A DNA stretch of 64,000 bases from Anaerolineales bacterium (GTDB lineage: Bacteria > Chloroflexota > Anaerolineae > Anaerolineales > Villigracilaceae), in assembly GCA_024710905.1 (NCBI GenBank), contig JANJTV010000036.1, positions 1-64,000 of the forward strand, written 5' to 3'. The position numbers were made by a program, and so were the translations under genes. Below the pieces are notes generated by a model. That model did not search any database and had not been told where the DNA came from. It worked only from the letters and a program-made list of their open reading frames with translations. Below, in pieces: positions 12,311-64,000 of the stretch; within the stretch, counting starts at the first letter, position 1, and every line of letters starts with the position of its first letter.

Positions 12311-14193
12311 CAGACCACCGAGGTGACGTCTTCCTGCAGCGGGCCGCCACGCACTGCTGCACCGGGAACAAGTTCGTCCAGCAAATCAAGGATTTCCGGG
12401 CTGCGACTGGCGCGGGCATGTTCGATTAATACGCGAACAGATTTACGGAATACCTCGCCGGAGCGGGATTCTTCGTTGTCCAGTCGGTAAATATCCGGGT
12501 GACTGGTTTTAAGCGTTTGCGCTGAAGGCTCCCAGAGCACTTCGTTGAGTTTTTCGCCGGGGCGCACGCCGGTAAAGACTATTTCAATATCACGGCCTGG
12601 CTCCAGCCCCGACAGGCGAATCAGGTCTTCGGCCAGGTCAAGGATGCGCACTGGCTGGCCCATGTTGAGCACAAAGGTTTCGCCGCCCTGACCCATAGCC
12701 GCCGCCTGTAAAACGAGATGAACGGCTTCAGGAATGGTCATGAAATAGCGCCGCATGCCAGGGTGGGTGACCGTCACCGGCCCGCCGGAAGCAATCTGGT
12801 GTTTAAAGATGGGGATAATACTGCCCCGGCTGCCAAGCACATTACCAAAGCGAACAACGGTTAAAGATTTACCGCTCTGGCGGGCAGCATCAAGCACGAT
12901 CATCTCCGCCAGTCGTTTGGTCGCGCCATAAACATTGGAGGGGGAAACGGCTTTATCTGTCGAAATCAGCACCATGTGTTCGGCGTTGTGGCGAATGGCA
13001 GCCTCCACAATGCATCGGGTTCCCAACACGTTGTTTAGCACTGCTTCTTCGATATTGGTCTGCATCAGCGGGACATGTTTGTGCGCCGCAGCATGGAAAA
13101 CCACCTGAGGGCGCAGTTGTAAGAAAACGGATTCAATCCGAACATCATCGCGCACATCAGCAATGATCGGTGTGATCTTAATGGTCGGGTTGTTTTCGCG
13201 CAGTTCCAGCAGGCTTTCAAAAATGCTGTTCTCGCCATGCCCGAGCAGGATTAATTCCTGCGGGTTCCAACGGGCAATCTGGCGACACAGTTCGCGTCCA
13301 ATTGAGCCGCCCGCGCCAGTCACCAGCACACGCCTCCCGCCCAGGCGTTCGCCCAACAGGGAGTCATCCGTAGCCGTCAACTCGCGGCGCAACAGGTCGG
13401 TAATATCCACTTCGCGCAGACGCGAAACGCTGACCCGCCCGCCGAGTAATTCATACAGCCCAGGCATGGTACGGAAAGGTACACCCTTCAGGCGACAGAC
13501 ATCCGCCACCAGGCGCACCACCCGCCCCGGCGCAGTCGGGATGGCGATGATCACTTCATCTACAGGTTGTTCATCCAACACACGCGCCAGGTCTGTTAAC
13601 ATTCCCACCACCGGCACACCCAACAGGGAATGGCCCTGCTTGGCCGGGTCATCATCCAGGAAAGCCACCGGCTGCAGGTTGACCTGGCGGGTCTTTTGCA
13701 TTTCCTTGACCACCAGCGCGCCGGCCGACCCGGCCCCGATGATCAATACCTTGTTCAATTGGCCATAGCGCGGCGGCGCGGATGACTCGGCCAGGATGCG
13801 CAGCGAAAAACGCGCACCGCCCACCAGCAGCAACGAGAGCAGCCAGTCAATGGCCAGTACCGAGCGCGGGAAACCCGGCCCAATCACCTGCAACCAGAAC
13901 AGGCCAATCACCAACCCTGAGACCAGCAACGAGGCCACCGTCACCGCCGTGGCAATCAACTTCAATTCATCAATGCTGGCATACACCCACAGGCGGCGAT
14001 ACAGGCCGAACCAGTAATACACTAGCGGTTTAATCACCAGCGAAACGCCGAGCAGCCACAACGCACCCTGGAAATAAAACCGGAAGAAATCCTCGCCGAT
14101 CTCCAGGCGCAGCACATAACTGCCGAGCGCCGAAATGGCAATCAGCAGCACATCTGCCAGCAACACATAACGATTACGAAAACGAGAACCCAA
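12310..14193 (-). CDS. CapD/FlaA1-like nucleotide-sugar 4,6-dehydratase (membrane-bound SDR)
   Basis: The N-terminal quarter has about four transmembrane helices, followed by a CoA-binding-like domain (VLIIGAGSAGALVVKEM) and a C-terminal extended SDR domain with TGAGGSIG at about 292-299 and AAAHKHVPLM. The catalytic region reads ISTDKAVSPSNVYGATK with Tyr422 and Lys426. Relatives convert UDP-N-acetylhexosamines to 4-keto-6-deoxy sugars for capsule, O-antigen or protein glycans. Several such enzymes have Met where this one has Tyr. Translation starts at a TTG immediately after the TAG of the upstream epimerase, so it depends on coupling. The length of 627 aa is typical. Part of this gene lies outside the palindrome, so the right-arm copy is cut by the window end. 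Confidence 0.9.
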   Translation of the reverse strand: MGSRFRNRYVLLADVLLIAISALGSYVLRLEIGEDFFRFYFQGALWLLGVSLVIKPLVYYWFGLYRRLWVYASIDELKLIATAVTVASLLVSGLVIGLFWLQVIGPGFPRSVLAIDWLLSLLLVGGARFSLRILAESSAPPRYGQLNKVLIIGAGSAGALVVKEMQKTRQVNLQPVAFLDDDPAKQGHSLLGVPVVGMLTDLARVLDEQPVDEVIIAIPTAPGRVVRLVADVCRLKGVPFRTMPGLYELLGGRVSVSRLREVDITDLLRRELTATDDSLLGERLGGRRVLVTGAGGSIGRELCRQIARWNPQELILLGHGENSIFESLLELRENNPTIKITPIIADVRDDVRIESVFLQLRPQVVFHAAAHKHVPLMQTNIEEAVLNNVLGTRCIVEAAIRHNAEHMVLISTDKAVSPSNVYGATKRLAEMIVLDAARQSGKSLTVVRFGNVLGSRGSIIPIFKHQIASGGPVTVTHPGMRRYFMTIPEAVHLVLQAAAMGQGGETFVLNMGQPVRILDLAEDLIRLSGLEPGRDIEIVFTGVRPGEKLNEVLWEPSAQTLKTSHPDIYRLDNEESRSGEVFRKSVRVLIEHARASRSPEILDLLDELVPGAAVRGGPLQEDVTSVV

Positions 14194-15120
14194 CTACGCC
14201 TTCCTCATCCAATCCACCACTGCCTGCAGGCCATCCGGCAGGCTAGTTTGGGCGGTAAAGCCCAGCACGCGGGTTGCCTTGGCCGGGCTGCCCACCGATT
14301 TATAAATATCTCCGGCGCGCGGTGCAGCAAACACCGGCTCGGGCGTGCCGGGAATCAGTTCCCGTAATCCATCCACCAGGTCAATCACCCGCGTTTCCAG
14401 GCCAGTACAGACATTAAAGACCTGCCCCGGCGCATCCGGGTGCTGGCTGGCTGCCAGGTTGGCGCGTACGACATCACCGACATAGACCAAATCACGGGTC
14501 TGACCGCCATCGCCAAAAATCGTCACCGGCTGGCCGTCCAGCAAGCGGCGGGCAAAGATCGGCACAGCCGCCGCATACATACTATCTGGACGTTGGCGCG
14601 GACCATAGATATTGAAATAGCGCAGAGCTGCCACTTCTAATCCAAAAGAGCGGGTGTACATCTCGGCATAAATTTCATCCACGCGCTTTGAAACGGCATA
14701 GGGGGATAAAGGTGACAGGATGGCCTCCTCGTCCAGGGGTAGTTCATCCAGATCGCCGTACACCGCCGCAGAAGAAGCTAACACAAACCGGCTCACCCCC
14801 GCCTTTCTCGCCGCTTCGAGCAGCACTTCCGTACCCTGTTGGTTAATACTGAAGCAAGCCAGCGGGTCTTCCATGGATTGCGGCACGGACACAAACGCAG
14901 CTTCATGAAAAACTACATTGATGTCGCGCATTGCTTCTGCGGCTTTGGATTCATCGCGGATATCGCCTTCGATTAATTCCACATCCAACCCGGCCAGATT
15001 CTCAGCCTTGCCCGTCGAAAAGTTGTCAAGCACACGCACAAATTCGCCCTGCTCGAGCAGGGCGCGCACCAGGTGAGAACCTATAAACCCGGCGCCGCCG
15101 GTAACAAGGTATTTGGTCAT
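14194..15120 (-). CDS. NAD-dependent UDP-sugar epimerase/dehydratase (GalE-like SDR)
   Basis: This is an extended short-chain dehydrogenase with the NAD-binding motif TGGAGFIGSH at residues 7-16, the serine loop LASSAAVYGD, the catalytic YAVSK, and NIYGPRQRPDSMYAAAVPIF, a stretch typical of UDP-GlcNAc or UDP-glucose 4-epimerases. It probably converts a UDP-hexose or UDP-N-acetylhexosamine at C4, supplying a precursor for the polysaccharide made by the surrounding operon. It shares one base (TAATG) with the upstream sugar transferase and abuts the TTG of the CapD-like gene. GlcNAc versus glucose specificity cannot be settled by eye. Confidence 0.88.
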   Translation of the reverse strand: MTKYLVTGGAGFIGSHLVRALLEQGEFVRVLDNFSTGKAENLAGLDVELIEGDIRDESKAAEAMRDINVVFHEAAFVSVPQSMEDPLACFSINQQGTEVLLEAARKAGVSRFVLASSAAVYGDLDELPLDEEAILSPLSPYAVSKRVDEIYAEMYTRSFGLEVAALRYFNIYGPRQRPDSMYAAAVPIFARRLLDGQPVTIFGDGGQTRDLVYVGDVVRANLAASQHPDAPGQVFNVCTGLETRVIDLVDGLRELIPGTPEPVFAAPRAGDIYKSVGSPAKATRVLGFTAQTSLPDGLQAVVDWMRKA

Positions 15121-16535
15121 TATCGTCCTTTTCCGCGTAAAACTGTGTTCACTGTACGCAGTAGTATCATAATATCCATCAATAACGAACGATGCTTAAT
15201 ATAATAAAGATCATACTCCAACTTCACACCGGTATCTTCCACGGTGGCGGCATAGCCGTAATTAATTTGCGCCCAGCCCGTAATGCCAGGTTTTACCAGT
15301 AGGCGCGCCCGGTAGAAGGGGATTTCACGCTGGAATGTTGCCACCCATTGCTCCCGCTCAGCACGCGGCCCCACCAAGCTCATCTCGCCGCGTAAAACGT
15401 TCCAGAATTGGGGGAATTCATCCAGGCGGGTCACGCGCAGGAAGTTTCCCACCCGGGTGATGCGTGGGTCACGCTCCCCTGCCATTTGGGCTTGCCCTTC
15501 CTTCTCAGCATCCTGCCGCATGGTGCGGAATTTGATCATCATGAATTCGCTGCCACCTTTGCCCAGGCGTTCCTGGCTGTAAAAGATGGGCCAGCCACTA
15601 TCAATCAGGGTTGCCAGACCAACAAATGGAAGCATAACAAGGAAAATGAACATCCCAACCACCGCGCCAAGAATATCAAGCGCCCGCTTGGCAATCTCAT
15701 AAAACCCACTGCTACGCGTTTCATCAACAAAGTTGCGAATAACCCAATCCGATTCCAGGTGATGGATCGGTACACGCCCAAGCAACTCTTCATACATGAT
15801 GGGCATACGAGTGATTTCAGTACCATGTTCACGCGCATCAAGCAGCGTCTGGAAAGTGGTGCCTTTCATCTCCCCGGAGATGGAAACAATCAGGTCGGTA
15901 ATATTCAGTTCGTCAACCAGGTGCATCAACTGGCTGCTATCGCCAATCACACGCACTTTTTCAATAAATTTTCCCTGCTTCTGGGGGTCGTCATCAATAA
16001 ACCCAACCAGAACAAATGGCGGCGGGGTAATCTCCCGATACATCCGCACCAGGGTTTTGCCATTGTTCCCTGCGCCAACTATTAGCATCCGGCGCATGAA
16101 GCTTGGGTTTGTATACAAACGAATATACAACCAGCGCCAAAATAACGTCAGGGGATATACCGCTACAAGGAAGCCAAAAAAGCCACGCCGGTTTATCGCC
16201 CCATCAAACGAAAAATAGACCACTGAATAGAGCAGGAAACCAACAATGGCAGCCATTAATACTGAGTTGAGCGTTTTTCGCCAGCTTGCAGCGCGGTGCA
16301 ACTCATAAATATCCACCAGGAAAATCGGCCAGAGGAGTGGGATGCCATAAAACCACCAGGGCACACGCACCTGAAAAAACTCCCAGCCGAAATCAAGGAA
16401 AGCATCCCCTTCGGCCCAAAAATAAATCCCGGCCACAAGAGCCAAGCTGGCCATCAGCATATCCCCAAGGAACAACAAGGCTCGTTGCTCGCTTGGGCGC
16501 AACCGGAATGTGGATCTTGGCGTATCGGCAGACAT
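15120..16535 (-). CDS. Polyprenyl-phosphate sugar-1-phosphate transferase (WcaJ/WbaP-like)
   Basis: This is an initiating enzyme that links the first sugar-1-phosphate to undecaprenyl phosphate at the membrane. It has four N-terminal hydrophobic helices, a CoA-binding-like central domain (MLIVGAGNNGKTLVRMY), a re-entrant or transmembrane helix near residue 300, and the C-terminal catalytic domain. Family motifs are QERLGKGG, MIKFRTM, a DPRITRVGNFLR stretch, LDEFPQFWNVLRGEMSLVGP and KPGITGWAQINY. The length of 471 aa is normal for the polyisoprenyl-phosphate hexose-1-phosphate transferase group. It is second in the operon, six bases after the glycosyltransferase. Confidence 0.93.
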   Translation of the reverse strand: MSADTPRSTFRLRPSEQRALLFLGDMLMASLALVAGIYFWAEGDAFLDFGWEFFQVRVPWWFYGIPLLWPIFLVDIYELHRAASWRKTLNSVLMAAIVGFLLYSVVYFSFDGAINRRGFFGFLVAVYPLTLFWRWLYIRLYTNPSFMRRMLIVGAGNNGKTLVRMYREITPPPFVLVGFIDDDPQKQGKFIEKVRVIGDSSQLMHLVDELNITDLIVSISGEMKGTTFQTLLDAREHGTEITRMPIMYEELLGRVPIHHLESDWVIRNFVDETRSSGFYEIAKRALDILGAVVGMFIFLVMLPFVGLATLIDSGWPIFYSQERLGKGGSEFMMIKFRTMRQDAEKEGQAQMAGERDPRITRVGNFLRVTRLDEFPQFWNVLRGEMSLVGPRAEREQWVATFQREIPFYRARLLVKPGITGWAQINYGYAATVEDTGVKLEYDLYYIKHRSLLMDIMILLRTVNTVLRGKGR

Positions 16536-16541
16536 ATCAGG

Positions 16542-17525
16542 CTATCGCGCTCCAAAAATGATGCTTTTCAAAAAGCCGCTTCCCCAGGCGATATGCATCA
16601 CTGACACAGCCAACGGGAATCCAATGAAAAAAAAGGGTTGTCGTACAGCCAGTGCAAGGCCAACCACGGTCAGTATGCCAAAGTATAAGACAATTTCAAA
16701 GATTATAAGCCACGCAAACCCGGGCATGAGTAAACCAACAAGAAAAAGCAAGAACAGGCTGGCTACAAATAACGGCGGCAGCGCCTGCCGCCAGCGCAGA
16801 CTGCCAGGATAGCGTTTGAGCATTTGATACTTCCAGAACCCGTAACGGAAATATTGCTGCGCCAGCGCTGTCAGCGTGGCACGCGCAAAATAAACGGAAC
16901 GCAGTTGCGGATCCAGCCAGATGCGTCCGCCAGTTTGACGAATGCGCGTGTTGAATTCGTAATCTTCATTGCTAAGCAGGTTTTCATCAAATTTGCCGAT
17001 TTTCTCAATGAGATTGCTCCGAAAAGTGCCAAAAGGAACAGTATCCACATAGGCTGCCTCGGTCGCATGGCGATAGAGTGCATCTCCCACGCCCAACGGA
17101 TGCGCCGCTGCGGTAGCAATGGATTTGGCAATCCAGGTATCGGCCCCGGGTCGAATCTCCCACACGCCACCCACGTTTTCAGCCTTGCCGGCCTGTAGCG
17201 CGGCAATCCCCTTTTCGACGTAATCAGGGTACGGGCCGGAATGGGCATCGAGCCGGATAATAAATTCTCCCTGGGCAGCTTCCAACGCACGATTGAGAGC
17301 GGCAGGAATTGTGCGAGCATCGTTATCGAGAACGACAATTGACAAATCGGGGTGGCTGGCCTGGAAATCGGCAATCACCTCACGCGTATTATCTGTAGAA
17401 TGGCCGTCAGAAATTAGGACTTCCATTTCAGTGCGCGGGTAGGTTTGCGAATAAATCGCATCCAATAAAAACCGGATGCGATTTTGTTCGTTATAACAGG
17501 GAACAATAATGGAAACAACTGGCAT
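16542..17525 (-). CDS. Family 2 glycosyltransferase (ExoA-like)
   Basis: This is a GT-A fold enzyme that begins with VSIIVPCYNEQNRI. It has the nucleotide-sugar loop SDGHSTDNT, a LDAHSGP stretch at the metal-binding DxD position, and NEDYEFNTRIRQTGGRIW in the acceptor region, all typical of succinoglycan-type ExoA enzymes. Two or three hydrophobic helices at about 245-320 anchor the C-terminus in the membrane, so it works on lipid-linked sugars at the inner face. It is the first gene of the overlapping polysaccharide operon. A GC-rich hairpin (GCCGCCCGGCGGC) lies directly before the ATG and could limit translation. Confidence 0.9.
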   Translation of the reverse strand: MPVVSIIVPCYNEQNRIRFLLDAIYSQTYPRTEMEVLISDGHSTDNTREVIADFQASHPDLSIVVLDNDARTIPAALNRALEAAQGEFIIRLDAHSGPYPDYVEKGIAALQAGKAENVGGVWEIRPGADTWIAKSIATAAAHPLGVGDALYRHATEAAYVDTVPFGTFRSNLIEKIGKFDENLLSNEDYEFNTRIRQTGGRIWLDPQLRSVYFARATLTALAQQYFRYGFWKYQMLKRYPGSLRWRQALPPLFVASLFLLFLVGLLMPGFAWLIIFEIVLYFGILTVVGLALAVRQPFFFIGFPLAVSVMHIAWGSGFLKSIIFGAR

Positions 17526-17573
17526 GGCACTTGCCGCCGGGCGGCACGGTGGACTATTTTACCACTTCAACAA

Positions 17574-17963
17574 TCACTGTTTGCACAGGGCAATGGCTTC
17601 AATCTCAACCAATGCGCCTTTCGGCAGCCCCGCTACGGCAATGGTGGAACGGGCAGGCGGGTTGGATGGGAAGAATTCGGCGTAGATGGTATTCATGGCA
17701 GGAAAATCGGCCATATCGCGCAGGAAAACAGTGGTCTTGACAACGGACTCAAGACTGGCGCCCCCCGCCTCGAGGACATTTTTCAGGTTTGTCAGCGCCT
17801 GGCGCGTTTCGGCTTCCAGACCGCCAGGCACCAGCTCGCCAACAGCGGGGTTAATCCCTACTTGCCCGGAGCAGAACAGCATGCTGCCTGTCTGGATGGC
17901 AACAGAGTAAGGGCCAATGGCTTTGGGGGCATTTTCGGTCGCGATCACGTTTCGGTTGCTCAT
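17574..17963 (-). CDS. ridA: RidA family reactive enamine/imine deaminase
   Basis: This is a small YjgF/YER057c/UK114 protein that hydrolyses reactive 2-aminoacrylate and related enamines formed by PLP enzymes. Visible family marks are IGPYSVAIQTG near residue 18, LFCSGQVGINP, LTNLKNVLEAGG, VVKTTVFLRDM and the C-terminal PARSTIAVAGLPKGALVEIEAIA with its conserved Arg and Glu. At 129 aa it matches the family. The third possible Met is chosen because AAGGAG lies seven bases before it. It has its own leader (TACAAT upstream) and stands between the polysaccharide operon and the tRNA operon. Confidence 0.93.
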   Translation of the reverse strand: MSNRNVIATENAPKAIGPYSVAIQTGSMLFCSGQVGINPAVGELVPGGLEAETRQALTNLKNVLEAGGASLESVVKTTVFLRDMADFPAMNTIYAEFFPSNPPARSTIAVAGLPKGALVEIEAIALCKQ

Positions 17964-18010
17964 GGTCATCTCCTTGTAGATGTGATTGTACTTTATTTCC
18001 CGAGCCACTT

Positions 18011-18045
18011 AAAACACAAAGACAGGCTTGGACACCTGTCTTTGT
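18011..18045 (-). terminator. Terminator of the tRNA-Phe/Gly/Cys transcript
   Basis: The 11-bp stem ACAAAGACAGG/CCTGTCTTTGT with an 8-nt loop sits three bases past the tRNA-Cys 3' end and is followed on the minus strand by GTTTT. Confidence 0.75.
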
Positions 18046-18047
18046 AG

Positions 18048-18118
18048 AGGCGACGATGGGATTTGAACCCATGATCAGGCTTTTGCAGAGCCTTGCCTTG
18101 CCACTTGGCCACGTCGCC
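18048..18118 (-). tRNA. tRNA-Cys(GCA)
   Basis: Acceptor stem GGCGACG/CGTCGCC, anticodon loop CTGCAAA (GCA), T-loop TTCAAAT and discriminator U all fit cysteine. CCA is not encoded. It is the last gene of the three-tRNA operon. Confidence 0.95.
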
Positions 18119-18127
18119 ATAAACACT

Positions 18128-18189
18128 GATTGCTGATTGAAGATTGCCGATTGCATACGCTTACAATCCACAATCTTCAATCAGCAATC
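18128..18189. repeat. Perfect 19-bp inverted repeat between tRNA-Cys and tRNA-Gly
   Basis: Arms GATTGCTGATTGAAGATTG and its exact complement are separated by 24 nt that contain further GATTG/CAATC fragments. It would form a long hairpin in the tRNA precursor. It may be a REP-like or MITE-like element, or a processing signal. It ends six bases before the tRNA-Gly 3' end. Confidence 0.75.
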
Positions 18190-18194
18190 TTTTG

Positions 18195-18266
18195 AGCGGG
18201 CGATGGGATTCGAACCCACGACCTTCTCCTTGGCAAGGAGACGTACTACCACTGTACTACGCCCGC
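18195..18266 (-). tRNA. tRNA-Gly(GCC)
   Basis: Acceptor stem GCGGGCG/CGCCCGC, anticodon loop TTGCCAA (GCC), T-loop TTCGAAT and discriminator U fit glycine. CCA is not encoded. It is the middle gene of the tRNA operon. Confidence 0.95.
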
Positions 18267-18294
18267 ATTTTCTTGGCAAACTTACCGCCGAGAG

Positions 18295-18367
18295 TGCCGA
18301 GAGTCAGGATCGAACTGACGACACCGCGATTTTCAGTCGCGTGCTCTACCTACTGAGCTATCTCGGC
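18295..18367 (-). tRNA. tRNA-Phe(GAA)
   Basis: Acceptor stem GCCGAGA/TCTCGGC, D-arm AGCTCAGTAGGTAGAGC, anticodon loop CTGAAAA (GAA), T-loop TTCGATC and discriminator A fit phenylalanine. CCA is not encoded. It is the first gene of the operon, directly after a strong promoter. Confidence 0.95.
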
Positions 18368-18396
18368 ATGGGATAGCCTCTGGTTAAGCGTGCGAG

Positions 18397-18425
18397 ATTT
18401 TACTCGTATTGAAGGAGATTGTCAA
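18397..18425 (-). promoter_or_regulatory. Promoter of the tRNA-Phe/Gly/Cys operon
   Basis: A minus-strand TTGACA, an exact 17-bp spacer and TAAAAT place the transcript start about 20 bases before mature tRNA-Phe. It is the best sigma-70-type promoter in the window. Confidence 0.8.
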
Positions 18426-18503
18426 GCAACTTTGGGCATGCCGGGCTTTCGGGGATTATTCTGACACACCGGCGGAAATGCAGACAGCCCTCTTGACGCA
18501 GTA

Positions 18504-18512
18504 TGCTATAAT
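18504..18512 (+). promoter_or_regulatory. Extended -10 promoter of the response regulator gene
   Basis: TGCTATAAT matches an extended -10 element, predicting a start near 18519 and a 30-nt leader. A TTGACG only eight bases upstream is too close to serve as the -35. Confidence 0.6.
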
Positions 18513-18550
18513 TTTTTAAACATTCCGCTCGCTGTTGGAACTTACTCATT

Positions 18551-18967
18551 ATGCCATCTTCCATCCTTCTTATAGAAGATAATTCCGCAGACGTCGACCT
18601 GATACGCCGCATGCTCGAAAAGGTAGATGCGGGTATTCGCATTACCGTTGCCCGGGATGGCGCAGAAGCGCTGGAAACAATTGACAACTGGGGCAGTGAG
18701 TCACCCGCCCCTGAGGTGATTTTGTTGGATTTGAAACTCCCGAAAGTGAGCGGGTTGGAAGTACTGAAACACTTAAAATCCAACCCGAGGACAAAAAGCC
18801 TGCCAGTGGTTGTGCTGACTTCATCGAATGAGCTAAAAGATATCCAGGAAGCGTACCAGATTGGGGCCAACTCATATATCTTGAAAGCCATCGATTTTGA
18901 TAATTTCTCGCAGGCGATTTCACTCATTCACAGGTACTGGTGCACCCTGAACATCCACCCGGAATAA
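18551..18967 (+). CDS. Single-domain response regulator (CheY/Rcp1-like)
   Basis: This is a 138-aa receiver domain with no output domain. The acidic pair is E9-D10 (LLIEDN), the phospho-acceptor D60 (ILLDLKLP), the switch T90 (VVLTSS) and the conserved K112 (YILKAI). The opening SILLIEDNSADVDLIRRML resembles Rcp1-type regulators that pair with bacteriophytochrome-like or hybrid kinases. It would relay phosphate by protein contact, not by DNA binding. No histidine kinase gene is adjacent. It ends at a terminator shared with tyrS. Confidence 0.92.
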   Translation: MPSSILLIEDNSADVDLIRRMLEKVDAGIRITVARDGAEALETIDNWGSESPAPEVILLDLKLPKVSGLEVLKHLKSNPRTKSLPVVVLTSSNELKDIQEAYQIGANSYILKAIDFDNFSQAISLIHRYWCTLNIHPE

Positions 18968-18968
18968 G

Positions 18969-18999
18969 AGAAGGGCGACCCTGACTGGGTCGCCCTTCT
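18969..18999. terminator. Bidirectional terminator between response regulator and tyrS
   Basis: A 13-bp stem AGAAGGGCGACCC/GGGTCGCCCTTCT with a 5-nt loop stands between converging genes. T-rich sequence follows on the plus strand (TTGATTAAG) and a short U-rich tract on the minus strand. Confidence 0.85.
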
Positions 19000-19007
19000 T
19001 GATTAAG

Positions 19008-20219
19008 TTATTGCACACGTACAAACCGCCGTTTGCCCACCTGCAAAACACCGGGGCCAGGGAAGGGTGCATCAAATTTTTCCAGAACAGCGCCATTCAG
19101 GCGCACACCTTTTTGGTCAATCATTCGGCGACCTTCATTCTTGCTGGTTACCAGGCTGGCGTCCACCAGTACATCCAATACGGTCTGGCCAGCTTTCAAG
19201 GCGTATTCTGGCATTTCATCCGGCAATTCTTTTTGCTGGAAGAGCCTGATAAAGGCTTCCTGGGCTTTGTTCGCTTCAGGCTCGCTGTAGTATGTGGCGG
19301 CAATCTCATGGGCTAGTTTCATCTTCGCGTCACGCGGATGCAGCCCCCCGGTAGCCAGCCCGTGCTCAAACGCAGTCACCTCGGATGGCAGCCAGCGGGT
19401 CACCAGGCGGGCATATTGCGGCATGGCCGCATCCGGTACAGACATCACCTTGCCGTACATATCTTCTGCCGTGGAATTCAGCGGGATATGATTGCCAAGG
19501 GATTTGCTCATTTTGATAACGCCGTCAGTACCCGGCAGGATGGCCATGATAATGCCAATATTGGGCTTGGCATCGAAAGCGGTCATAATCTTGCGGCCTG
19601 CAGTAACGATGTTAAAAAGCTGATCGGTGCCACCTACCTGCACATCAGTTTTTAAGGCATATGCGTCATACCCCTGCATAATGGCATAGAAGAATTCATG
19701 CAGGTACAAAGCATCATCTTTGTCGAAACGATTTCGGAAGGCTTCGCGGGTCAGGAACTGCTGGATGGTAAAGTTGGAACCAAGCTTGATCAAGTCGGCG
19801 AACTTAAGCTCAGAAAGCCATTCATGGTTATAACGAATGGTGGTCTTTTTTTCATCCAGTACACGGAAAGCCTGCCTCGCATAAGTGCGGGCATTATCCA
19901 TTACCTGCTCATGGGTCAACAGCGGACGGAGTTTATCTTTGTCAGACGGATCACCAATCAGGGATGTGTAGGTGCCGATCAGGAACGTGACTTCATGCCC
20001 CAGATCCTGGAACTGGCGCAGTTTCCGCATGGTCACGGTGTGACCAATGTGCAAATCAGCGGTACGAGGGTCGTACCCGCAATAGACGCGCAATGGGCGG
20101 TCTTCTTTTTCGGCTTCTGCCAGGCGCTCATGCAATTCACGGGCCATGGTCTGGCGAAGTTTTTCATCACCGTACTCGGTGCCTTGCATTAAGATTTCTA
20201 CCTGCTCTGCAATTTTCAT
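19008..20219 (-). CDS. tyrS: Tyrosyl-tRNA synthetase
   Basis: This class I synthetase charges tRNA-Tyr. The HIGH motif is DLHIGHT (H57-H60), the second signature is IKMSKS at 235-240, and the tyrosine/tRNA core includes GTDQLFN. The C-terminal 65 residues form an S4-type RNA-binding domain (VLVDASLVTSKNEGRRMIDQKGVRLNG). At 403 aa it is of normal length. The start is the ATG five bases after GGAGG; the ORF-track start is a TTG inside that ribosome binding site. The 130-nt leader carries a Tyr-rich peptide and an attenuator hairpin, so expression is probably controlled by tyrosine charging. Confidence 0.95.
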   Translation of the reverse strand: MKIAEQVEILMQGTEYGDEKLRQTMARELHERLAEAEKEDRPLRVYCGYDPRTADLHIGHTVTMRKLRQFQDLGHEVTFLIGTYTSLIGDPSDKDKLRPLLTHEQVMDNARTYARQAFRVLDEKKTTIRYNHEWLSELKFADLIKLGSNFTIQQFLTREAFRNRFDKDDALYLHEFFYAIMQGYDAYALKTDVQVGGTDQLFNIVTAGRKIMTAFDAKPNIGIIMAILPGTDGVIKMSKSLGNHIPLNSTAEDMYGKVMSVPDAAMPQYARLVTRWLPSEVTAFEHGLATGGLHPRDAKMKLAHEIAATYYSEPEANKAQEAFIRLFQQKELPDEMPEYALKAGQTVLDVLVDASLVTSKNEGRRMIDQKGVRLNGAVLEKFDAPFPGPGVLQVGKRRFVRVQ

Positions 20220-56380: not shown

Positions 56381-56391
56381 GCAGGTTGTTG

Positions 56392-56397
56392 TATAAT
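56392..56397 (+). promoter_or_regulatory. -10 box of the tyrS leader (right-arm copy)
   Basis: TATAAT ends six bases before the leader-peptide ATG, as on the left arm. Confidence 0.58.
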
Positions 56398-56403
56398 AGC
56401 GCC

Positions 56404-56454
56404 ATGATGTCTCATCAACACGACAGCAATTCCTATTATTCCTTCTCAGCGTAA
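56404..56454 (+). CDS. tyrS leader peptide with tandem Tyr codons (right-arm copy)
   Basis: This 16-codon frame encodes MMSHQHDSNSYYSFSA and is read directly on the plus strand here. The adjacent TATTAT lies 34 bases after the first ATG begins. Confidence 0.68.
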   Translation: MMSHQHDSNSYYSFSA

Positions 56455-56475
56455 ACCATGCCCTGTGGAGGTTCC

Positions 56476-56502
56476 AATGCGCCTGCCCACAGCAGGCGCA
56501 TT
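56476..56502 (+). terminator. tyrS attenuator hairpin (right-arm copy)
   Basis: The stem AATGCGCCTGC/GCAGGCGCATT is followed by TTTTT. The competing antiterminator strand GCCCTGTGG lies at 56460-56468. Confidence 0.73.
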
Positions 56503-56537
56503 TTTATTCCGCAGGCATAACCCTTTTGGAGGTTGCA

Positions 56538-57749
56538 ATGAAAATTGCAGAGCAGGTAGAAATCTTAATGCAAGGCACCGAGTACGGTGATGAAAAACTT
56601 CGCCAGACCATGGCCCGTGAATTGCATGAGCGCCTGGCAGAAGCCGAAAAAGAAGACCGCCCATTGCGCGTCTATTGCGGGTACGACCCTCGTACCGCTG
56701 ATTTGCACATTGGTCACACCGTGACCATGCGGAAACTGCGCCAGTTCCAGGATCTGGGGCATGAAGTCACGTTCCTGATCGGCACCTACACATCCCTGAT
56801 TGGTGATCCGTCTGACAAAGATAAACTCCGTCCGCTGTTGACCCATGAGCAGGTAATGGATAATGCCCGCACTTATGCGAGGCAGGCTTTCCGTGTACTG
56901 GATGAAAAAAAGACCACCATTCGTTATAACCATGAATGGCTTTCTGAGCTTAAGTTCGCCGACTTGATCAAGCTTGGTTCCAACTTTACCATCCAGCAGT
57001 TCCTGACCCGCGAAGCCTTCCGAAATCGTTTCGACAAAGATGATGCTTTGTACCTGCATGAATTCTTCTATGCCATTATGCAGGGGTATGACGCATATGC
57101 CTTAAAAACTGATGTGCAGGTAGGTGGCACCGATCAGCTTTTTAACATCGTTACTGCAGGCCGCAAGATTATGACCGCTTTCGATGCCAAGCCCAATATT
57201 GGCATTATCATGGCCATCCTGCCGGGTACTGACGGCGTTATCAAAATGAGCAAATCCCTTGGCAATCATATCCCGCTGAATTCCACGGCAGAAGATATGT
57301 ACGGCAAGGTGATGTCTGTACCGGATGCGGCCATGCCGCAATATGCCCGCCTGGTGACCCGCTGGCTGCCATCCGAGGTGACTGCGTTTGAGCACGGGCT
57401 GGCTACCGGGGGGCTGCATCCGCGTGACGCGAAGATGAAACTAGCCCATGAGATTGCCGCCACATACTACAGCGAGCCTGAAGCGAACAAAGCCCAGGAA
57501 GCCTTTATCAGGCTCTTCCAGCAAAAAGAATTGCCGGATGAAATGCCAGAATACGCCTTGAAAGCTGGCCAGACCGTATTGGATGTACTGGTGGACGCCA
57601 GCCTGGTAACCAGCAAGAATGAAGGTCGCCGAATGATTGACCAAAAAGGTGTGCGCCTGAATGGCGCTGTTCTGGAAAAATTTGATGCACCCTTCCCTGG
57701 CCCCGGTGTTTTGCAGGTGGGCAAACGGCGGTTTGTACGTGTGCAATAA
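56538..57749 (+). CDS. tyrS: Tyrosyl-tRNA synthetase (right-arm copy)
   Basis: This is an identical 403-aa TyrRS with DLHIGHT, IKMSKS and a C-terminal S4 domain. GGAGG lies five bases before the ATG. Confidence 0.92.
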   Translation: MKIAEQVEILMQGTEYGDEKLRQTMARELHERLAEAEKEDRPLRVYCGYDPRTADLHIGHTVTMRKLRQFQDLGHEVTFLIGTYTSLIGDPSDKDKLRPLLTHEQVMDNARTYARQAFRVLDEKKTTIRYNHEWLSELKFADLIKLGSNFTIQQFLTREAFRNRFDKDDALYLHEFFYAIMQGYDAYALKTDVQVGGTDQLFNIVTAGRKIMTAFDAKPNIGIIMAILPGTDGVIKMSKSLGNHIPLNSTAEDMYGKVMSVPDAAMPQYARLVTRWLPSEVTAFEHGLATGGLHPRDAKMKLAHEIAATYYSEPEANKAQEAFIRLFQQKELPDEMPEYALKAGQTVLDVLVDASLVTSKNEGRRMIDQKGVRLNGAVLEKFDAPFPGPGVLQVGKRRFVRVQ

Positions 57750-57757
57750 CTTAATCA

Positions 57758-57788
57758 AGAAGGGCGACCCAGTCAGGGTCGCCCTTCT
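57758..57788. terminator. Bidirectional terminator between tyrS and response regulator (right-arm copy)
   Basis: Mirror of the 13-bp-stem hairpin between the same converging genes on the left arm. Confidence 0.82.
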
Positions 57789-57789
57789 C

Positions 57790-58206
57790 TTATTCCGGGT
57801 GGATGTTCAGGGTGCACCAGTACCTGTGAATGAGTGAAATCGCCTGCGAGAAATTATCAAAATCGATGGCTTTCAAGATATATGAGTTGGCCCCAATCTG
57901 GTACGCTTCCTGGATATCTTTTAGCTCATTCGATGAAGTCAGCACAACCACTGGCAGGCTTTTTGTCCTCGGGTTGGATTTTAAGTGTTTCAGTACTTCC
58001 AACCCGCTCACTTTCGGGAGTTTCAAATCCAACAAAATCACCTCAGGGGCGGGTGACTCACTGCCCCAGTTGTCAATTGTTTCCAGCGCTTCTGCGCCAT
58101 CCCGGGCAACGGTAATGCGAATACCCGCATCTACCTTTTCGAGCATGCGGCGTATCAGGTCGACGTCTGCGGAATTATCTTCTATAAGAAGGATGGAAGA
58201 TGGCAT
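57790..58206 (-). CDS. Single-domain response regulator (right-arm copy)
   Basis: This is an identical 138-aa receiver with phospho-acceptor D60, acidic pair E9-D10 and K112. There is no output domain. Confidence 0.9.
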   Translation of the reverse strand: MPSSILLIEDNSADVDLIRRMLEKVDAGIRITVARDGAEALETIDNWGSESPAPEVILLDLKLPKVSGLEVLKHLKSNPRTKSLPVVVLTSSNELKDIQEAYQIGANSYILKAIDFDNFSQAISLIHRYWCTLNIHPE

Positions 58207-58244
58207 AATGAGTAAGTTCCAACAGCGAGCGGAATGTTTAAAAA

Positions 58245-58253
58245 ATTATAGCA
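58245..58253 (-). promoter_or_regulatory. Response regulator extended -10 promoter (right-arm copy)
   Basis: Mirror of TGCTATAAT. Confidence 0.55.
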
Positions 58254-58331
58254 TACTGCGTCAAGAGGGCTGTCTGCATTTCCGCCGGTGTGTCAGAATA
58301 ATCCCCGAAAGCCCGGCATGCCCAAAGTTGC

Positions 58332-58360
58332 TTGACAATCTCCTTCAATACGAGTAAAAT
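58332..58360 (+). promoter_or_regulatory. tRNA operon promoter (right-arm copy)
   Basis: TTGACA-N17-TAAAAT in plus orientation, 30 bases before tRNA-Phe. Confidence 0.78.
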
Positions 58361-58389
58361 CTCGCACGCTTAACCAGAGGCTATCCCAT

Positions 58390-58462
58390 GCCGAGATAGC
58401 TCAGTAGGTAGAGCACGCGACTGAAAATCGCGGTGTCGTCAGTTCGATCCTGACTCTCGGCA
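58390..58462 (+). tRNA. tRNA-Phe(GAA) (right-arm copy)
   Basis: Sequence identical to the left-arm tRNA-Phe: acceptor GCCGAGA/TCTCGGC, anticodon GAA, no encoded CCA. Confidence 0.93.
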
Positions 58463-58490
58463 CTCTCGGCGGTAAGTTTGCCAAGAAAAT

Positions 58491-58562
58491 GCGGGCGTAG
58501 TACAGTGGTAGTACGTCTCCTTGCCAAGGAGAAGGTCGTGGGTTCGAATCCCATCGCCCGCT
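58491..58562 (+). tRNA. tRNA-Gly(GCC) (right-arm copy)
   Basis: Sequence identical to the left-arm tRNA-Gly: acceptor GCGGGCG/CGCCCGC, anticodon GCC, no encoded CCA. Confidence 0.93.
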
Positions 58563-58567
58563 CAAAA

Positions 58568-58629
58568 GATTGCTGATTGAAGATTGTGGATTGTAAGCGT
58601 ATGCAATCGGCAATCTTCAATCAGCAATC
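58568..58629. repeat. 19-bp inverted repeat between tRNA-Gly and tRNA-Cys (right-arm copy)
   Basis: Mirror of the left-arm hairpin, with arms GATTGCTGATTGAAGATTG and its complement around a 24-nt loop. Confidence 0.73.
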
Positions 58630-58638
58630 AGTGTTTAT

Positions 58639-58709
58639 GGCGACGTGGCCAAGTGGCAAGGCAAGGCTCTGCAAAAGCCTGATCATGGGTTCAAATCCCA
58701 TCGTCGCCT
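58639..58709 (+). tRNA. tRNA-Cys(GCA) (right-arm copy)
   Basis: Sequence identical to the left-arm tRNA-Cys: acceptor GGCGACG/CGTCGCC, anticodon GCA, no encoded CCA. Confidence 0.93.
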
Positions 58710-58711
58710 CT

Positions 58712-58746
58712 ACAAAGACAGGTGTCCAAGCCTGTCTTTGTGTTTT
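58712..58746 (+). terminator. tRNA operon terminator (right-arm copy)
   Basis: The stem ACAAAGACAGG/CCTGTCTTTGT is followed by GTTTT. Confidence 0.73.
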
Positions 58747-58793
58747 AAGTGGCTCGGGAAATAAAGTACAATCACATCTACAAGGAGATGACC

Positions 58794-59183
58794 ATGAGCA
58801 ACCGAAACGTGATCGCGACCGAAAATGCCCCCAAAGCCATTGGCCCTTACTCTGTTGCCATCCAGACAGGCAGCATGCTGTTCTGCTCCGGGCAAGTAGG
58901 GATTAACCCCGCTGTTGGCGAGCTGGTGCCTGGCGGTCTGGAAGCCGAAACGCGCCAGGCGCTGACAAACCTGAAAAATGTCCTCGAGGCGGGGGGCGCC
59001 AGTCTTGAGTCCGTTGTCAAGACCACTGTTTTCCTGCGCGATATGGCCGATTTTCCTGCCATGAATACCATCTACGCCGAATTCTTCCCATCCAACCCGC
59101 CTGCCCGTTCCACCATTGCCGTAGCGGGGCTGCCGAAAGGCGCATTGGTTGAGATTGAAGCCATTGCCCTGTGCAAACAGTGA
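58794..59183 (+). CDS. ridA: RidA family deaminase (right-arm copy)
   Basis: This is an identical 129-aa RidA with IGPYSVAIQTG and PARSTIAVAGLPKGA. AAGGAG lies seven bases before the ATG. Confidence 0.9.
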   Translation: MSNRNVIATENAPKAIGPYSVAIQTGSMLFCSGQVGINPAVGELVPGGLEAETRQALTNLKNVLEAGGASLESVVKTTVFLRDMADFPAMNTIYAEFFPSNPPARSTIAVAGLPKGALVEIEAIALCKQ

Positions 59184-59231
59184 TTGTTGAAGTGGTAAAA
59201 TAGTCCACCGTGCCGCCCGGCGGCAAGTGCC

Positions 59232-60215
59232 ATGCCAGTTGTTTCCATTATTGTTCCCTGTTATAACGAACAAAATCGCATCCGGTTTTTATTGGATGCG
59301 ATTTATTCGCAAACCTACCCGCGCACTGAAATGGAAGTCCTAATTTCTGACGGCCATTCTACAGATAATACGCGTGAGGTGATTGCCGATTTCCAGGCCA
59401 GCCACCCCGATTTGTCAATTGTCGTTCTCGATAACGATGCTCGCACAATTCCTGCCGCTCTCAATCGTGCGTTGGAAGCTGCCCAGGGAGAATTTATTAT
59501 CCGGCTCGATGCCCATTCCGGCCCGTACCCTGATTACGTCGAAAAGGGGATTGCCGCGCTACAGGCCGGCAAGGCTGAAAACGTGGGTGGCGTGTGGGAG
59601 ATTCGACCCGGGGCCGATACCTGGATTGCCAAATCCATTGCTACCGCAGCGGCGCATCCGTTGGGCGTGGGAGATGCACTCTATCGCCATGCGACCGAGG
59701 CAGCCTATGTGGATACTGTTCCTTTTGGCACTTTTCGGAGCAATCTCATTGAGAAAATCGGCAAATTTGATGAAAACCTGCTTAGCAATGAAGATTACGA
59801 ATTCAACACGCGCATTCGTCAAACTGGCGGACGCATCTGGCTGGATCCGCAACTGCGTTCCGTTTATTTTGCGCGTGCCACGCTGACAGCGCTGGCGCAG
59901 CAATATTTCCGTTACGGGTTCTGGAAGTATCAAATGCTCAAACGCTATCCTGGCAGTCTGCGCTGGCGGCAGGCGCTGCCGCCGTTATTTGTAGCCAGCC
60001 TGTTCTTGCTTTTTCTTGTTGGTTTACTCATGCCCGGGTTTGCGTGGCTTATAATCTTTGAAATTGTCTTATACTTTGGCATACTGACCGTGGTTGGCCT
60101 TGCACTGGCTGTACGACAACCCTTTTTTTTCATTGGATTCCCGTTGGCTGTGTCAGTGATGCATATCGCCTGGGGAAGCGGCTTTTTGAAAAGCATCATT
60201 TTTGGAGCGCGATAG
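59232..60215 (+). CDS. Family 2 glycosyltransferase, ExoA-like (right-arm copy)
   Basis: This is an identical 327-aa GT2 with VSIIVPCYNEQ, SDGHSTDNT and a membrane-anchored C-terminus. It is the first gene of the mirrored polysaccharide operon. Confidence 0.88.
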   Translation: MPVVSIIVPCYNEQNRIRFLLDAIYSQTYPRTEMEVLISDGHSTDNTREVIADFQASHPDLSIVVLDNDARTIPAALNRALEAAQGEFIIRLDAHSGPYPDYVEKGIAALQAGKAENVGGVWEIRPGADTWIAKSIATAAAHPLGVGDALYRHATEAAYVDTVPFGTFRSNLIEKIGKFDENLLSNEDYEFNTRIRQTGGRIWLDPQLRSVYFARATLTALAQQYFRYGFWKYQMLKRYPGSLRWRQALPPLFVASLFLLFLVGLLMPGFAWLIIFEIVLYFGILTVVGLALAVRQPFFFIGFPLAVSVMHIAWGSGFLKSIIFGAR

Positions 60216-60221
60216 CCTGAT

Positions 60222-61637
60222 ATGTCTGCCGATACGCCAAGATCCACATTCCGGTTGCGCCCAAGCGAGCAACGAGCCTTGTTGTTCCTTGGGGATATGC
60301 TGATGGCCAGCTTGGCTCTTGTGGCCGGGATTTATTTTTGGGCCGAAGGGGATGCTTTCCTTGATTTCGGCTGGGAGTTTTTTCAGGTGCGTGTGCCCTG
60401 GTGGTTTTATGGCATCCCACTCCTCTGGCCGATTTTCCTGGTGGATATTTATGAGTTGCACCGCGCTGCAAGCTGGCGAAAAACGCTCAACTCAGTATTA
60501 ATGGCTGCCATTGTTGGTTTCCTGCTCTATTCAGTGGTCTATTTTTCGTTTGATGGGGCGATAAACCGGCGTGGCTTTTTTGGCTTCCTTGTAGCGGTAT
60601 ATCCCCTGACGTTATTTTGGCGCTGGTTGTATATTCGTTTGTATACAAACCCAAGCTTCATGCGCCGGATGCTAATAGTTGGCGCAGGGAACAATGGCAA
60701 AACCCTGGTGCGGATGTATCGGGAGATTACCCCGCCGCCATTTGTTCTGGTTGGGTTTATTGATGACGACCCCCAGAAGCAGGGAAAATTTATTGAAAAA
60801 GTGCGTGTGATTGGCGATAGCAGCCAGTTGATGCACCTGGTTGACGAACTGAATATTACCGACCTGATTGTTTCCATCTCCGGGGAGATGAAAGGCACCA
60901 CTTTCCAGACGCTGCTTGATGCGCGTGAACATGGTACTGAAATCACTCGTATGCCCATCATGTATGAAGAGTTGCTTGGGCGTGTACCGATCCATCACCT
61001 GGAATCGGATTGGGTTATTCGCAACTTTGTTGATGAAACGCGTAGCAGTGGGTTTTATGAGATTGCCAAGCGGGCGCTTGATATTCTTGGCGCGGTGGTT
61101 GGGATGTTCATTTTCCTTGTTATGCTTCCATTTGTTGGTCTGGCAACCCTGATTGATAGTGGCTGGCCCATCTTTTACAGCCAGGAACGCCTGGGCAAAG
61201 GTGGCAGCGAATTCATGATGATCAAATTCCGCACCATGCGGCAGGATGCTGAGAAGGAAGGGCAAGCCCAAATGGCAGGGGAGCGTGACCCACGCATCAC
61301 CCGGGTGGGAAACTTCCTGCGCGTGACCCGCCTGGATGAATTCCCCCAATTCTGGAACGTTTTACGCGGCGAGATGAGCTTGGTGGGGCCGCGTGCTGAG
61401 CGGGAGCAATGGGTGGCAACATTCCAGCGTGAAATCCCCTTCTACCGGGCGCGCCTACTGGTAAAACCTGGCATTACGGGCTGGGCGCAAATTAATTACG
61501 GCTATGCCGCCACCGTGGAAGATACCGGTGTGAAGTTGGAGTATGATCTTTATTATATTAAGCATCGTTCGTTATTGATGGATATTATGATACTACTGCG
61601 TACAGTGAACACAGTTTTACGCGGAAAAGGACGATAA
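60222..61637 (+). CDS. Polyprenyl-phosphate sugar-1-phosphate transferase (right-arm copy)
   Basis: This is an identical 471-aa initiating transferase with MIKFRTM, LDEFPQFWNVLRGEMSLVGP and KPGITGWAQINY. Confidence 0.9.
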   Translation: MSADTPRSTFRLRPSEQRALLFLGDMLMASLALVAGIYFWAEGDAFLDFGWEFFQVRVPWWFYGIPLLWPIFLVDIYELHRAASWRKTLNSVLMAAIVGFLLYSVVYFSFDGAINRRGFFGFLVAVYPLTLFWRWLYIRLYTNPSFMRRMLIVGAGNNGKTLVRMYREITPPPFVLVGFIDDDPQKQGKFIEKVRVIGDSSQLMHLVDELNITDLIVSISGEMKGTTFQTLLDAREHGTEITRMPIMYEELLGRVPIHHLESDWVIRNFVDETRSSGFYEIAKRALDILGAVVGMFIFLVMLPFVGLATLIDSGWPIFYSQERLGKGGSEFMMIKFRTMRQDAEKEGQAQMAGERDPRITRVGNFLRVTRLDEFPQFWNVLRGEMSLVGPRAEREQWVATFQREIPFYRARLLVKPGITGWAQINYGYAATVEDTGVKLEYDLYYIKHRSLLMDIMILLRTVNTVLRGKGR

Positions 61638-62563
61638 TGACCAAATACCTTGTTACCGGCGGCGCCGGGTTTATAGGTTCTCACCTGGTGCGCGCCCTGC
61701 TCGAGCAGGGCGAATTTGTGCGTGTGCTTGACAACTTTTCGACGGGCAAGGCTGAGAATCTGGCCGGGTTGGATGTGGAATTAATCGAAGGCGATATCCG
61801 CGATGAATCCAAAGCCGCAGAAGCAATGCGCGACATCAATGTAGTTTTTCATGAAGCTGCGTTTGTGTCCGTGCCGCAATCCATGGAAGACCCGCTGGCT
61901 TGCTTCAGTATTAACCAACAGGGTACGGAAGTGCTGCTCGAAGCGGCGAGAAAGGCGGGGGTGAGCCGGTTTGTGTTAGCTTCTTCTGCGGCGGTGTACG
62001 GCGATCTGGATGAACTACCCCTGGACGAGGAGGCCATCCTGTCACCTTTATCCCCCTATGCCGTTTCAAAGCGCGTGGATGAAATTTATGCCGAGATGTA
62101 CACCCGCTCTTTTGGATTAGAAGTGGCAGCTCTGCGCTATTTCAATATCTATGGTCCGCGCCAACGTCCAGATAGTATGTATGCGGCGGCTGTGCCGATC
62201 TTTGCCCGCCGCTTGCTGGACGGCCAGCCGGTGACGATTTTTGGCGATGGCGGTCAGACCCGTGATTTGGTCTATGTCGGTGATGTCGTACGCGCCAACC
62301 TGGCAGCCAGCCAGCACCCGGATGCGCCGGGGCAGGTCTTTAATGTCTGTACTGGCCTGGAAACGCGGGTGATTGACCTGGTGGATGGATTACGGGAACT
62401 GATTCCCGGCACGCCCGAGCCGGTGTTTGCTGCACCGCGCGCCGGAGATATTTATAAATCGGTGGGCAGCCCGGCCAAGGCAACCCGCGTGCTGGGCTTT
62501 ACCGCCCAAACTAGCCTGCCGGATGGCCTGCAGGCAGTGGTGGATTGGATGAGGAAGGCGTAG
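61637..62563 (+). CDS. GalE-like UDP-sugar epimerase (right-arm copy)
   Basis: This is an identical 308-aa SDR with TGGAGFIGSH and catalytic YAVSK. It shares one base with the preceding gene. Confidence 0.86.
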   Translation: MTKYLVTGGAGFIGSHLVRALLEQGEFVRVLDNFSTGKAENLAGLDVELIEGDIRDESKAAEAMRDINVVFHEAAFVSVPQSMEDPLACFSINQQGTEVLLEAARKAGVSRFVLASSAAVYGDLDELPLDEEAILSPLSPYAVSKRVDEIYAEMYTRSFGLEVAALRYFNIYGPRQRPDSMYAAAVPIFARRLLDGQPVTIFGDGGQTRDLVYVGDVVRANLAASQHPDAPGQVFNVCTGLETRVIDLVDGLRELIPGTPEPVFAAPRAGDIYKSVGSPAKATRVLGFTAQTSLPDGLQAVVDWMRKA

Positions 62564-64000
62564 TTGGGTTCTCGTTTTCGTAATCGTTATGTGTTGCTGG
62601 CAGATGTGCTGCTGATTGCCATTTCGGCGCTCGGCAGTTATGTGCTGCGCCTGGAGATCGGCGAGGATTTCTTCCGGTTTTATTTCCAGGGTGCGTTGTG
62701 GCTGCTCGGCGTTTCGCTGGTGATTAAACCGCTAGTGTATTACTGGTTCGGCCTGTATCGCCGCCTGTGGGTGTATGCCAGCATTGATGAATTGAAGTTG
62801 ATTGCCACGGCGGTGACGGTGGCCTCGTTGCTGGTCTCAGGGTTGGTGATTGGCCTGTTCTGGTTGCAGGTGATTGGGCCGGGTTTCCCGCGCTCGGTAC
62901 TGGCCATTGACTGGCTGCTCTCGTTGCTGCTGGTGGGCGGTGCGCGTTTTTCGCTGCGCATCCTGGCCGAGTCATCCGCGCCGCCGCGCTATGGCCAATT
63001 GAACAAGGTATTGATCATCGGGGCCGGGTCGGCCGGCGCGCTGGTGGTCAAGGAAATGCAAAAGACCCGCCAGGTCAACCTGCAGCCGGTGGCTTTCCTG
63101 GATGATGACCCGGCCAAGCAGGGCCATTCCCTGTTGGGTGTGCCGGTGGTGGGAATGTTAACAGACCTGGCGCGTGTGTTGGATGAACAACCTGTAGATG
63201 AAGTGATCATCGCCATCCCGACTGCGCCGGGGCGGGTGGTGCGCCTGGTGGCGGATGTCTGTCGCCTGAAGGGTGTACCTTTCCGTACCATGCCTGGGCT
63301 GTATGAATTACTCGGCGGGCGGGTCAGCGTTTCGCGTCTGCGCGAAGTGGATATTACCGACCTGTTGCGCCGCGAGTTGACGGCTACGGATGACTCCCTG
63401 TTGGGCGAACGCCTGGGCGGGAGGCGTGTGCTGGTGACTGGCGCGGGCGGCTCAATTGGACGCGAACTGTGTCGCCAGATTGCCCGTTGGAACCCGCAGG
63501 AATTAATCCTGCTCGGGCATGGCGAGAACAGCATTTTTGAAAGCCTGCTGGAACTGCGCGAAAACAACCCGACCATTAAGATCACACCGATCATTGCTGA
63601 TGTGCGCGATGATGTTCGGATTGAATCCGTTTTCTTACAACTGCGCCCTCAGGTGGTTTTCCATGCTGCGGCGCACAAACATGTCCCGCTGATGCAGACC
63701 AATATCGAAGAAGCAGTGCTAAACAACGTGTTGGGAACCCGATGCATTGTGGAGGCTGCCATTCGCCACAACGCCGAACACATGGTGCTGATTTCGACAG
63801 ATAAAGCCGTTTCCCCCTCCAATGTTTATGGCGCGACCAAACGACTGGCGGAGATGATCGTGCTTGATGCTGCCCGCCAGAGCGGTAAATCTTTAACCGT
63901 TGTTCGCTTTGGTAATGTGCTTGGCAGCCGGGGCAGTATTATCCCCATCTTTAAACACCAGATTGCTTCCGGCGGGCCGGTGACGGTCACCCACCCTGGC
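62564..64000 (+). CDS. CapD/FlaA1-like sugar dehydratase, 3'-truncated by the window end (right-arm copy)
   Basis: The first 479 of 627 residues are present, including the N-terminal helices, TGAGGSIG and the catalytic NVYGATK. The TTG start directly follows the epimerase TAG. The ORF track omits it because no stop codon falls inside the window. It shows that the palindrome continues past the window edge. Confidence 0.85.
   Translation, partial: MGSRFRNRYVLLADVLLIAISALGSYVLRLEIGEDFFRFYFQGALWLLGVSLVIKPLVYYWFGLYRRLWVYASIDELKLIATAVTVASLLVSGLVIGLFWLQVIGPGFPRSVLAIDWLLSLLLVGGARFSLRILAESSAPPRYGQLNKVLIIGAGSAGALVVKEMQKTRQVNLQPVAFLDDDPAKQGHSLLGVPVVGMLTDLARVLDEQPVDEVIIAIPTAPGRVVRLVADVCRLKGVPFRTMPGLYELLGGRVSVSRLREVDITDLLRRELTATDDSLLGERLGGRRVLVTGAGGSIGRELCRQIARWNPQELILLGHGENSIFESLLELRENNPTIKITPIIADVRDDVRIESVFLQLRPQVVFHAAAHKHVPLMQTNIEEAVLNNVLGTRCIVEAAIRHNAEHMVLISTDKAVSPSNVYGATKRLAEMIVLDAARQSGKSLTVVRFGNVLGSRGSIIPIFKHQIASGGPVTVTHPG

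What the first reader, a model, noticed from the sequence alone, without database searches (positions are those of the whole stretch)
12757..64000. A spacer-free palindrome of more than 51 kb fills most of the window
Positions x and 76757-x are complementary from the axis at 38378/38379 to the window end. All mirrored ORFs have identical proteins, and all terminal and internal stretches I compared match exactly. Perfect palindromes this long are unstable in bacteria, and two untouched copies of ftsK, tyrS, lgt and three tRNA genes with no divergence are not expected from an old duplication. A fold-back in assembly, a missed sequencing adapter or an amplification chimera is the most likely cause. 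A fresh tandem-inversion duplication seeded at a short palindrome is the main biological alternative.
Basis: partly seen in the sequence, partly recalled or inferred. Interest (0 to 1): 0.9.

Follow-up and report, generated by a model that had tools for sequence, protein, structure and literature searches.

The report
Fold-back assembly artefact, not real palindrome
The huge perfect palindrome is a contig that folded back on itself during assembly or library preparation, at a short natural palindrome inside an ordinary signalling gene; the real continuation of that gene sits on another contig of the same draft genome.

Summary
The window is bases 1-64000 of a 76,756-base contig (C37), and the whole contig equals its own reverse complement, with 0 mismatches: one 38,378-base arm plus its mirror image. 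The biology is ordinary. The axis cuts a membrane-GAF-GGDEF gene at about codon 180. Contig C11 of the same draft genome overlaps the last 75 bases of the arm (92% over 71 bases) and carries the missing half of that gene across the axis. In 10 of 11 related genera the same HD-GYP gene is followed by the uninterrupted gene. GC skew runs unchanged C90 - arm - C11. Both outer ends of C37 overlap the same contig, C90, by exactly 141 bases, the k-mer of the assembly (28 such overlaps in the bin); a real inverted duplication needs two different outer flanks. The axis sits on a rare natural near-palindrome (17 such sites in 1.74 Mb), where a strand or graph path can fold back. The genome encodes SbcD and an SbcC-like protein; in E. 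coli SbcCD cuts much shorter spacer-free palindromes. Verdict: fold-back artefact. Raw reads were not available, so a real duplication in a minority of cells is not formally excluded.

The parts
1..38378 (+). The single real arm of contig C37 (38,378 bases), joined to its own reverse complement
   Evidence: C37 (76,756 bases) equals its reverse complement exactly; no internal 21-base duplicates in the arm
38379..64000 (-). Mirror copy of the arm (continues to contig base 76756); should be treated as spurious sequence
   Evidence: 0 mismatches against 12757-38378 and, with 64001-76756, against the whole arm
38365..38392 (.). Fold-back axis, 38378/38379. C11 has here a natural near-palindrome with 14-base arms and one mismatched pair (12-base perfect core CCCGGGCCCGGG); only 17 sites of this quality in 1.74 Mb of this genome
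37841..38378 (+). 5' part (179 whole codons) of a membrane-GAF-GGDEF (predicted diguanylate cyclase) gene cut by the axis; its 3' part is on contig C11
34681..37836 (+). Intact GAF/HD-GYP-like gene next to the axis; it is followed by the GGDEF gene in 10 of 11 relatives examined
1..141 (+). Outer end of the arm: identical to the last 141 bases of contig C90 (k-mer overlap); both ends of C37 carry this same overlap

Best explanation
The palindrome is an artefact. One true 38,378-base stretch of the chromosome was joined to its own reverse complement at a short natural near-palindrome inside a GGDEF gene. SHOWN: the whole contig is self-complementary; the gene cut at the axis continues on contig C11; both outer ends lead to the same contig C90 by a 141-base k-mer overlap. 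INFERRED: the population is a mixture of strains, so no exactly matching sequence carried the arm across the axis in the k=141 graph. The only continuation left was a fold-back, coming either from snap-back chimeric short fragments formed at the near-palindrome during library preparation, or from a low-k or local-assembly step that walked through the palindrome onto its own opposite strand. The assembler then closed the arm onto itself, which gives a contig of exactly twice the arm. The true order is most likely C90 - arm - C11.
For: (1) The entire contig, not just part of it, is a perfect palindrome, as expected when a single graph path is closed on itself. (2) The end of C11 overlaps the last 75 bases of the arm (92% identity over 71) and continues past the axis with the rest of the gene: N-part on C37, GAF-GGDEF part on C11. 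(3) Ten of 11 related genera carry HD-GYP then an uninterrupted membrane-GAF-GGDEF gene aligning across the axis, same orientation. (4) Both ends of C37 overlap the same end of C90 by exactly 141 bases; 28 end pairs in the bin show that overlap, so k=141. (5) The axis coincides with a rare near-palindrome, 17 sites in 1.74 Mb. (6) Several contig ends in this bin overlap other contig ends at 87-97% identity, i.e. strain-variant breaks like arm/C11. (7) GC skew keeps its sign and size over C90 (-0.092), arm (-0.063), C11 (-0.059, -0.061), and tetranucleotide use of C11 and C90 matches the arm (r about 0.96). (8) Contig C63 begins with a perfect 120-base spacer-free palindrome, a possible second fold-back in the same assembly. 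(9) Chimeric reads that switch strand at natural palindromes or inverted repeats are described for short-read libraries (PMC10908179), and assemblers do concatenate copies of one sequence (PMC8116208).
Against: No reads were available, so spanning reads and depth are untested. The arm/C11 overlap is short and 92%, not 100%, so C11 is the same locus in a related strain or an imperfectly assembled neighbour rather than proven contiguous. Genes further along C11 are not next to the HD-GYP gene in relatives. A real inverted duplication assembled with short reads could also give a self-complementary contig. Only C90 is seen as outer flank, but a second flank could be unbinned. Natural spacer-free palindromes of 32-46 bases elsewhere in the bin did not fold back, so a palindrome alone is not enough.
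Confidence: 0.95

Rival explanations
1. A real, recent inverted duplication (about 77 kb, spacer-free) in all or part of the population, seeded by fold-back repair or replication at the short natural palindrome.
For: The axis lies on a natural near-palindrome, which could also seed a biological fold-back. Arms without divergence would fit a very young event. Large inverted repeats of 38-76 kb exist in L. delbrueckii ssp. bulgaricus (PMC5345009).
Against: One outer flank only: both ends reach the same C90 end. C11 and 10 of 11 relatives carry the gene intact across the axis. The genome has SbcD (above the curated cut-off) and an SbcC-like protein; in E. coli SbcCD cleavage of a 460-base perfect palindrome is lethal (PMC4245961). 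The L. bulgaricus repeats keep a 1-8.8 kb central spacer and lie at the replication terminus, whereas here there is no spacer and no skew switch.
Confidence: 0.03
2. A hairpin (covalently closed) end of a linear replicon, read through by the sequencer.
For: It would give a self-complementary contig with a single kind of outer flank, as seen.
Against: The axis is inside a coding sequence that is intact on C11 and in relatives; skew and composition continue from arm to C11; the near-palindrome lies in a conserved coding segment (RSTRARGERLE, aligned to ESTHARIQRLE in a relative).
Confidence: 0.005
3. A missed adapter or fold-back in single-molecule long reads.
For: Such reads exist (PMC12870357; PMC6218980).
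Against: The bin has 141-base exact overlaps between contig ends, the mark of a k=141 de Bruijn short-read assembly, and is fragmented in 154 contigs; a missed adapter would have no reason to pick a near-palindrome as its axis.
Confidence: 0.01

Closest known systems
Strand-switching chimeric reads at natural palindromes/inverted repeats (PDSM model, PMC10908179)
   Same: Chimeric sequence made of one strand joined to its opposite strand, with the switch at a natural near-palindrome
   Different: Described for human capture libraries at the read level; here the join has been carried into a 76.8 kb contig
Contigs holding duplicated/concatenated copies of one genome (CheckV, PMC8116208)
   Same: Assembler output with every k-mer present twice, recognisable by k-mer frequency
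   Different: The CheckV text describes repeated copies in viral contigs; here the copy is inverted and bacterial
Amplification and long-read fold-back palindromes (Pacasus PMC6218980; Breakinator PMC12870357)
   Same: Spacer-free fold-back artefacts
   Different: These are in long reads; here the assembly looks short-read, k=141
Terminus inverted repeats of Lactobacillus delbrueckii ssp. bulgaricus (PMC5345009)
   Same: Total size up to 76 kb and highly similar arms
   Different: Real, with 1-8.8 kb central spacer, in complete chromosomes, at the replication terminus; none of these holds here

Membership tests
Fold-back assembly/library artefact | Contig is self-complementary over its full length, so exactly twice the arm | tested here: met
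   76756 = 2 x 38378, 0 mismatches
Fold-back assembly/library artefact | True continuation across the axis exists elsewhere in the assembly | tested here: met
   C11 end carries the rest of the cut gene; overlap is 92%, so from a related strain or an imperfect neighbour
Fold-back assembly/library artefact | Both outer ends attach to the same neighbour | tested here: met
   C90 right end overlaps C37 left and right ends by 141 bases; an unbinned second neighbour cannot be excluded
Fold-back assembly/library artefact | Junction at a short natural palindrome | tested here: met
   14-base arms, one mismatched pair in C11; 17 such sites in 1.74 Mb
Fold-back assembly/library artefact | No doubled depth, no independent spanning molecules | not testable with these tools
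   Raw reads not held
Natural large inverted repeat (L. bulgaricus type) | Central unique spacer of 1 kb or more | tested here: not met
   Spacer is 0 bases
Natural large inverted repeat (L. bulgaricus type) | Two different outer flanks | tested here: not met
   Only C90 found in the bin
Natural large inverted repeat (L. bulgaricus type) | Location at the replication terminus (skew switch, dif) | tested here: not met
   Skew unchanged across C90-arm-C11; best dif match has 10 of 28 mismatches

The most novel reading that the evidence does not exclude
A minority of cells in the sampled population really carried a fresh, spacer-free inverted duplication of this region, seeded at the coding near-palindrome, and the assembler picked up its junction.
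Probability: 0.03. Interest if true: 0.55.

Novelty: not a real feature. Interest (0 to 1): 0.05.

Why it matters
As biology it does not. As data hygiene it does: this genome carries 38 kb of spurious duplicate sequence (tyrS, ftsK, lgt, three tRNAs), which may add to its estimated 6.84% contamination and would mislead gene-dosage, synteny or palindrome surveys. A simple filter (contig equals its own reverse complement) would catch such cases.

Tried and rejected
Nine contigs under 3 kb first appeared palindromic, but they are runs of N and were discarded. Replication-terminus inverted repeat: rejected on skew, spacer and flanks. Hairpin telomere: rejected because the gene is intact across the axis elsewhere. 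Synteny of genes further along C11: not conserved in relatives, so it neither supports nor opposes the link. A scan of named genomes with the HD-GYP protein found only distant homologues, so no named close relative. Literature searches for palindromic contigs from metagenome assemblers found nothing direct.

Full report
OBSERVATION. All 25,622 position pairs x / 76757-x between 12757 and 38378 are complementary. The window is bases 1-64000 of contig C37 of a 154-contig draft genome; C37 is 76,756 bases long. After fetching 64001-76756, the complete contig is identical to its reverse complement.

WHAT LIES AT THE AXIS. The gene order up to the axis is ordinary: ribonuclease D-like, MBL-fold, polysaccharide genes, tyrS, lgt, ftsK, PNP-like, then a GAF/HD-GYP-like gene (34681-37836) and the start of the next gene at 37841 (names without a family hit are from recall of sequence motifs). 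That second gene is cut at the axis after 179 codons and then runs into its own mirror. A 500-base search of the same genome found one more match, the last 71-75 bases of contig C11, 92% identical and ending at the axis. Read from its end, C11 continues past the axis with an open frame of a GAF domain and a GGDEF domain. The combined protein (517 aa) aligns almost end to end, across the axis, with the gene that directly follows the HD-GYP gene in relatives: 10 of the 11 relative loci examined, with a similar linker at the axis (RSTRARGERLE here, ESTHARIQRLE in one relative). The natural arrangement is thus an uninterrupted gene, and C11 is where it goes on.

WHY THERE. C11 has at this spot TTCAACCCGGGCCCGGGGTGAAC, a perfect 12-base core in a near-palindrome with 14-base arms and one mismatched pair. 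Sites of that quality occur 17 times in 1.74 Mb of this genome, so the coincidence with the axis is about one in 100,000 by chance. Strand-switching chimeric reads at such sites are documented for short-read libraries (PMC10908179).

ASSEMBLY FORENSICS. Among contig ends read, 28 pairs overlap by exactly 141 bases, which identifies the final de Bruijn k (141 is the default maximum of MEGAHIT, from my own knowledge; compare the k-length terminal repeats noted in PMC8116208). The left and right ends of C37 both overlap the right end of C90 by 141 bases, so there is one outer flank, not two. Several contig ends overlap other contig ends at 87-97% identity, showing that strain variation breaks this assembly; the arm/C11 overlap is of the same kind. 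The other contigs that could be checked are not palindromic, but C63 starts with a 120-base perfect spacer-free palindrome that may be a second, aborted fold-back. GC skew and tetranucleotide composition run continuously C90 - arm - C11.

MECHANISM. Shown: self-complementary contig, gene continuation on C11, single outer neighbour, axis on a near-palindrome. Inferred: lack of an exact strain-matched continuation at k=141 left only a fold-back continuation, supplied by snap-back chimeric fragments or by a low-k/local assembly step, and the path closed on itself. I cannot separate these two routes without reads.

BIOLOGICAL RIVALS. A real 77 kb spacer-free inverted duplication would need two flanks, would break a gene that is intact on C11 and in relatives, and would have to survive SbcCD: the genome has SbcD above its curated cut-off, and an SbcC-like protein (314 bits, below the curated cut-off of 478.5) on C11 itself. 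In E. coli, SbcCD cleavage at a 460-base perfect palindrome is lethal (PMC4245961). The known large inverted repeats of L. bulgaricus have central spacers of 1-8.8 kb and lie at the terminus (PMC5345009); here there is neither. A hairpin telomere is excluded by the gene continuing across the axis.

VERDICT. Residual doubt is limited to a minority genome in the population, which only the raw reads could show.

Noticed in passing
G000:C63:1-120 (L084): The contig begins with a perfect 120-base spacer-free palindrome (axis TACCTGG|CCAGGTA), possibly a second fold-back artefact at a contig end.
   Followed up: partly
L163 (G000:C51:4520-5305) and L005:4340-6895: SbcD and an SbcC-like protein are encoded on different contigs; the SbcC-like gene lies about 4-6 kb beyond the axis on C11.
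   Followed up: partly
G000 contig ends, e.g. C100/C137, C115/C119, C78/C110, C39/C58, C9/C126: Contig ends overlap other contig ends at 92-97% identity, a sign of strain mixture in the bin; its contamination estimate is 6.84%.
   Followed up: partly
C129:2045, C123:19604, C59:3307, C28:3372 (contig coordinates in G000): Natural spacer-free perfect palindromes of 36-46 bases, some with A-run/T-run ends like two-way terminators.
   Followed up: no
window 10197-12310: Two adjacent FemAB-like (peptidoglycan-type aminoacyltransferase) genes; identity from recall of sequence motifs only.
   Followed up: no
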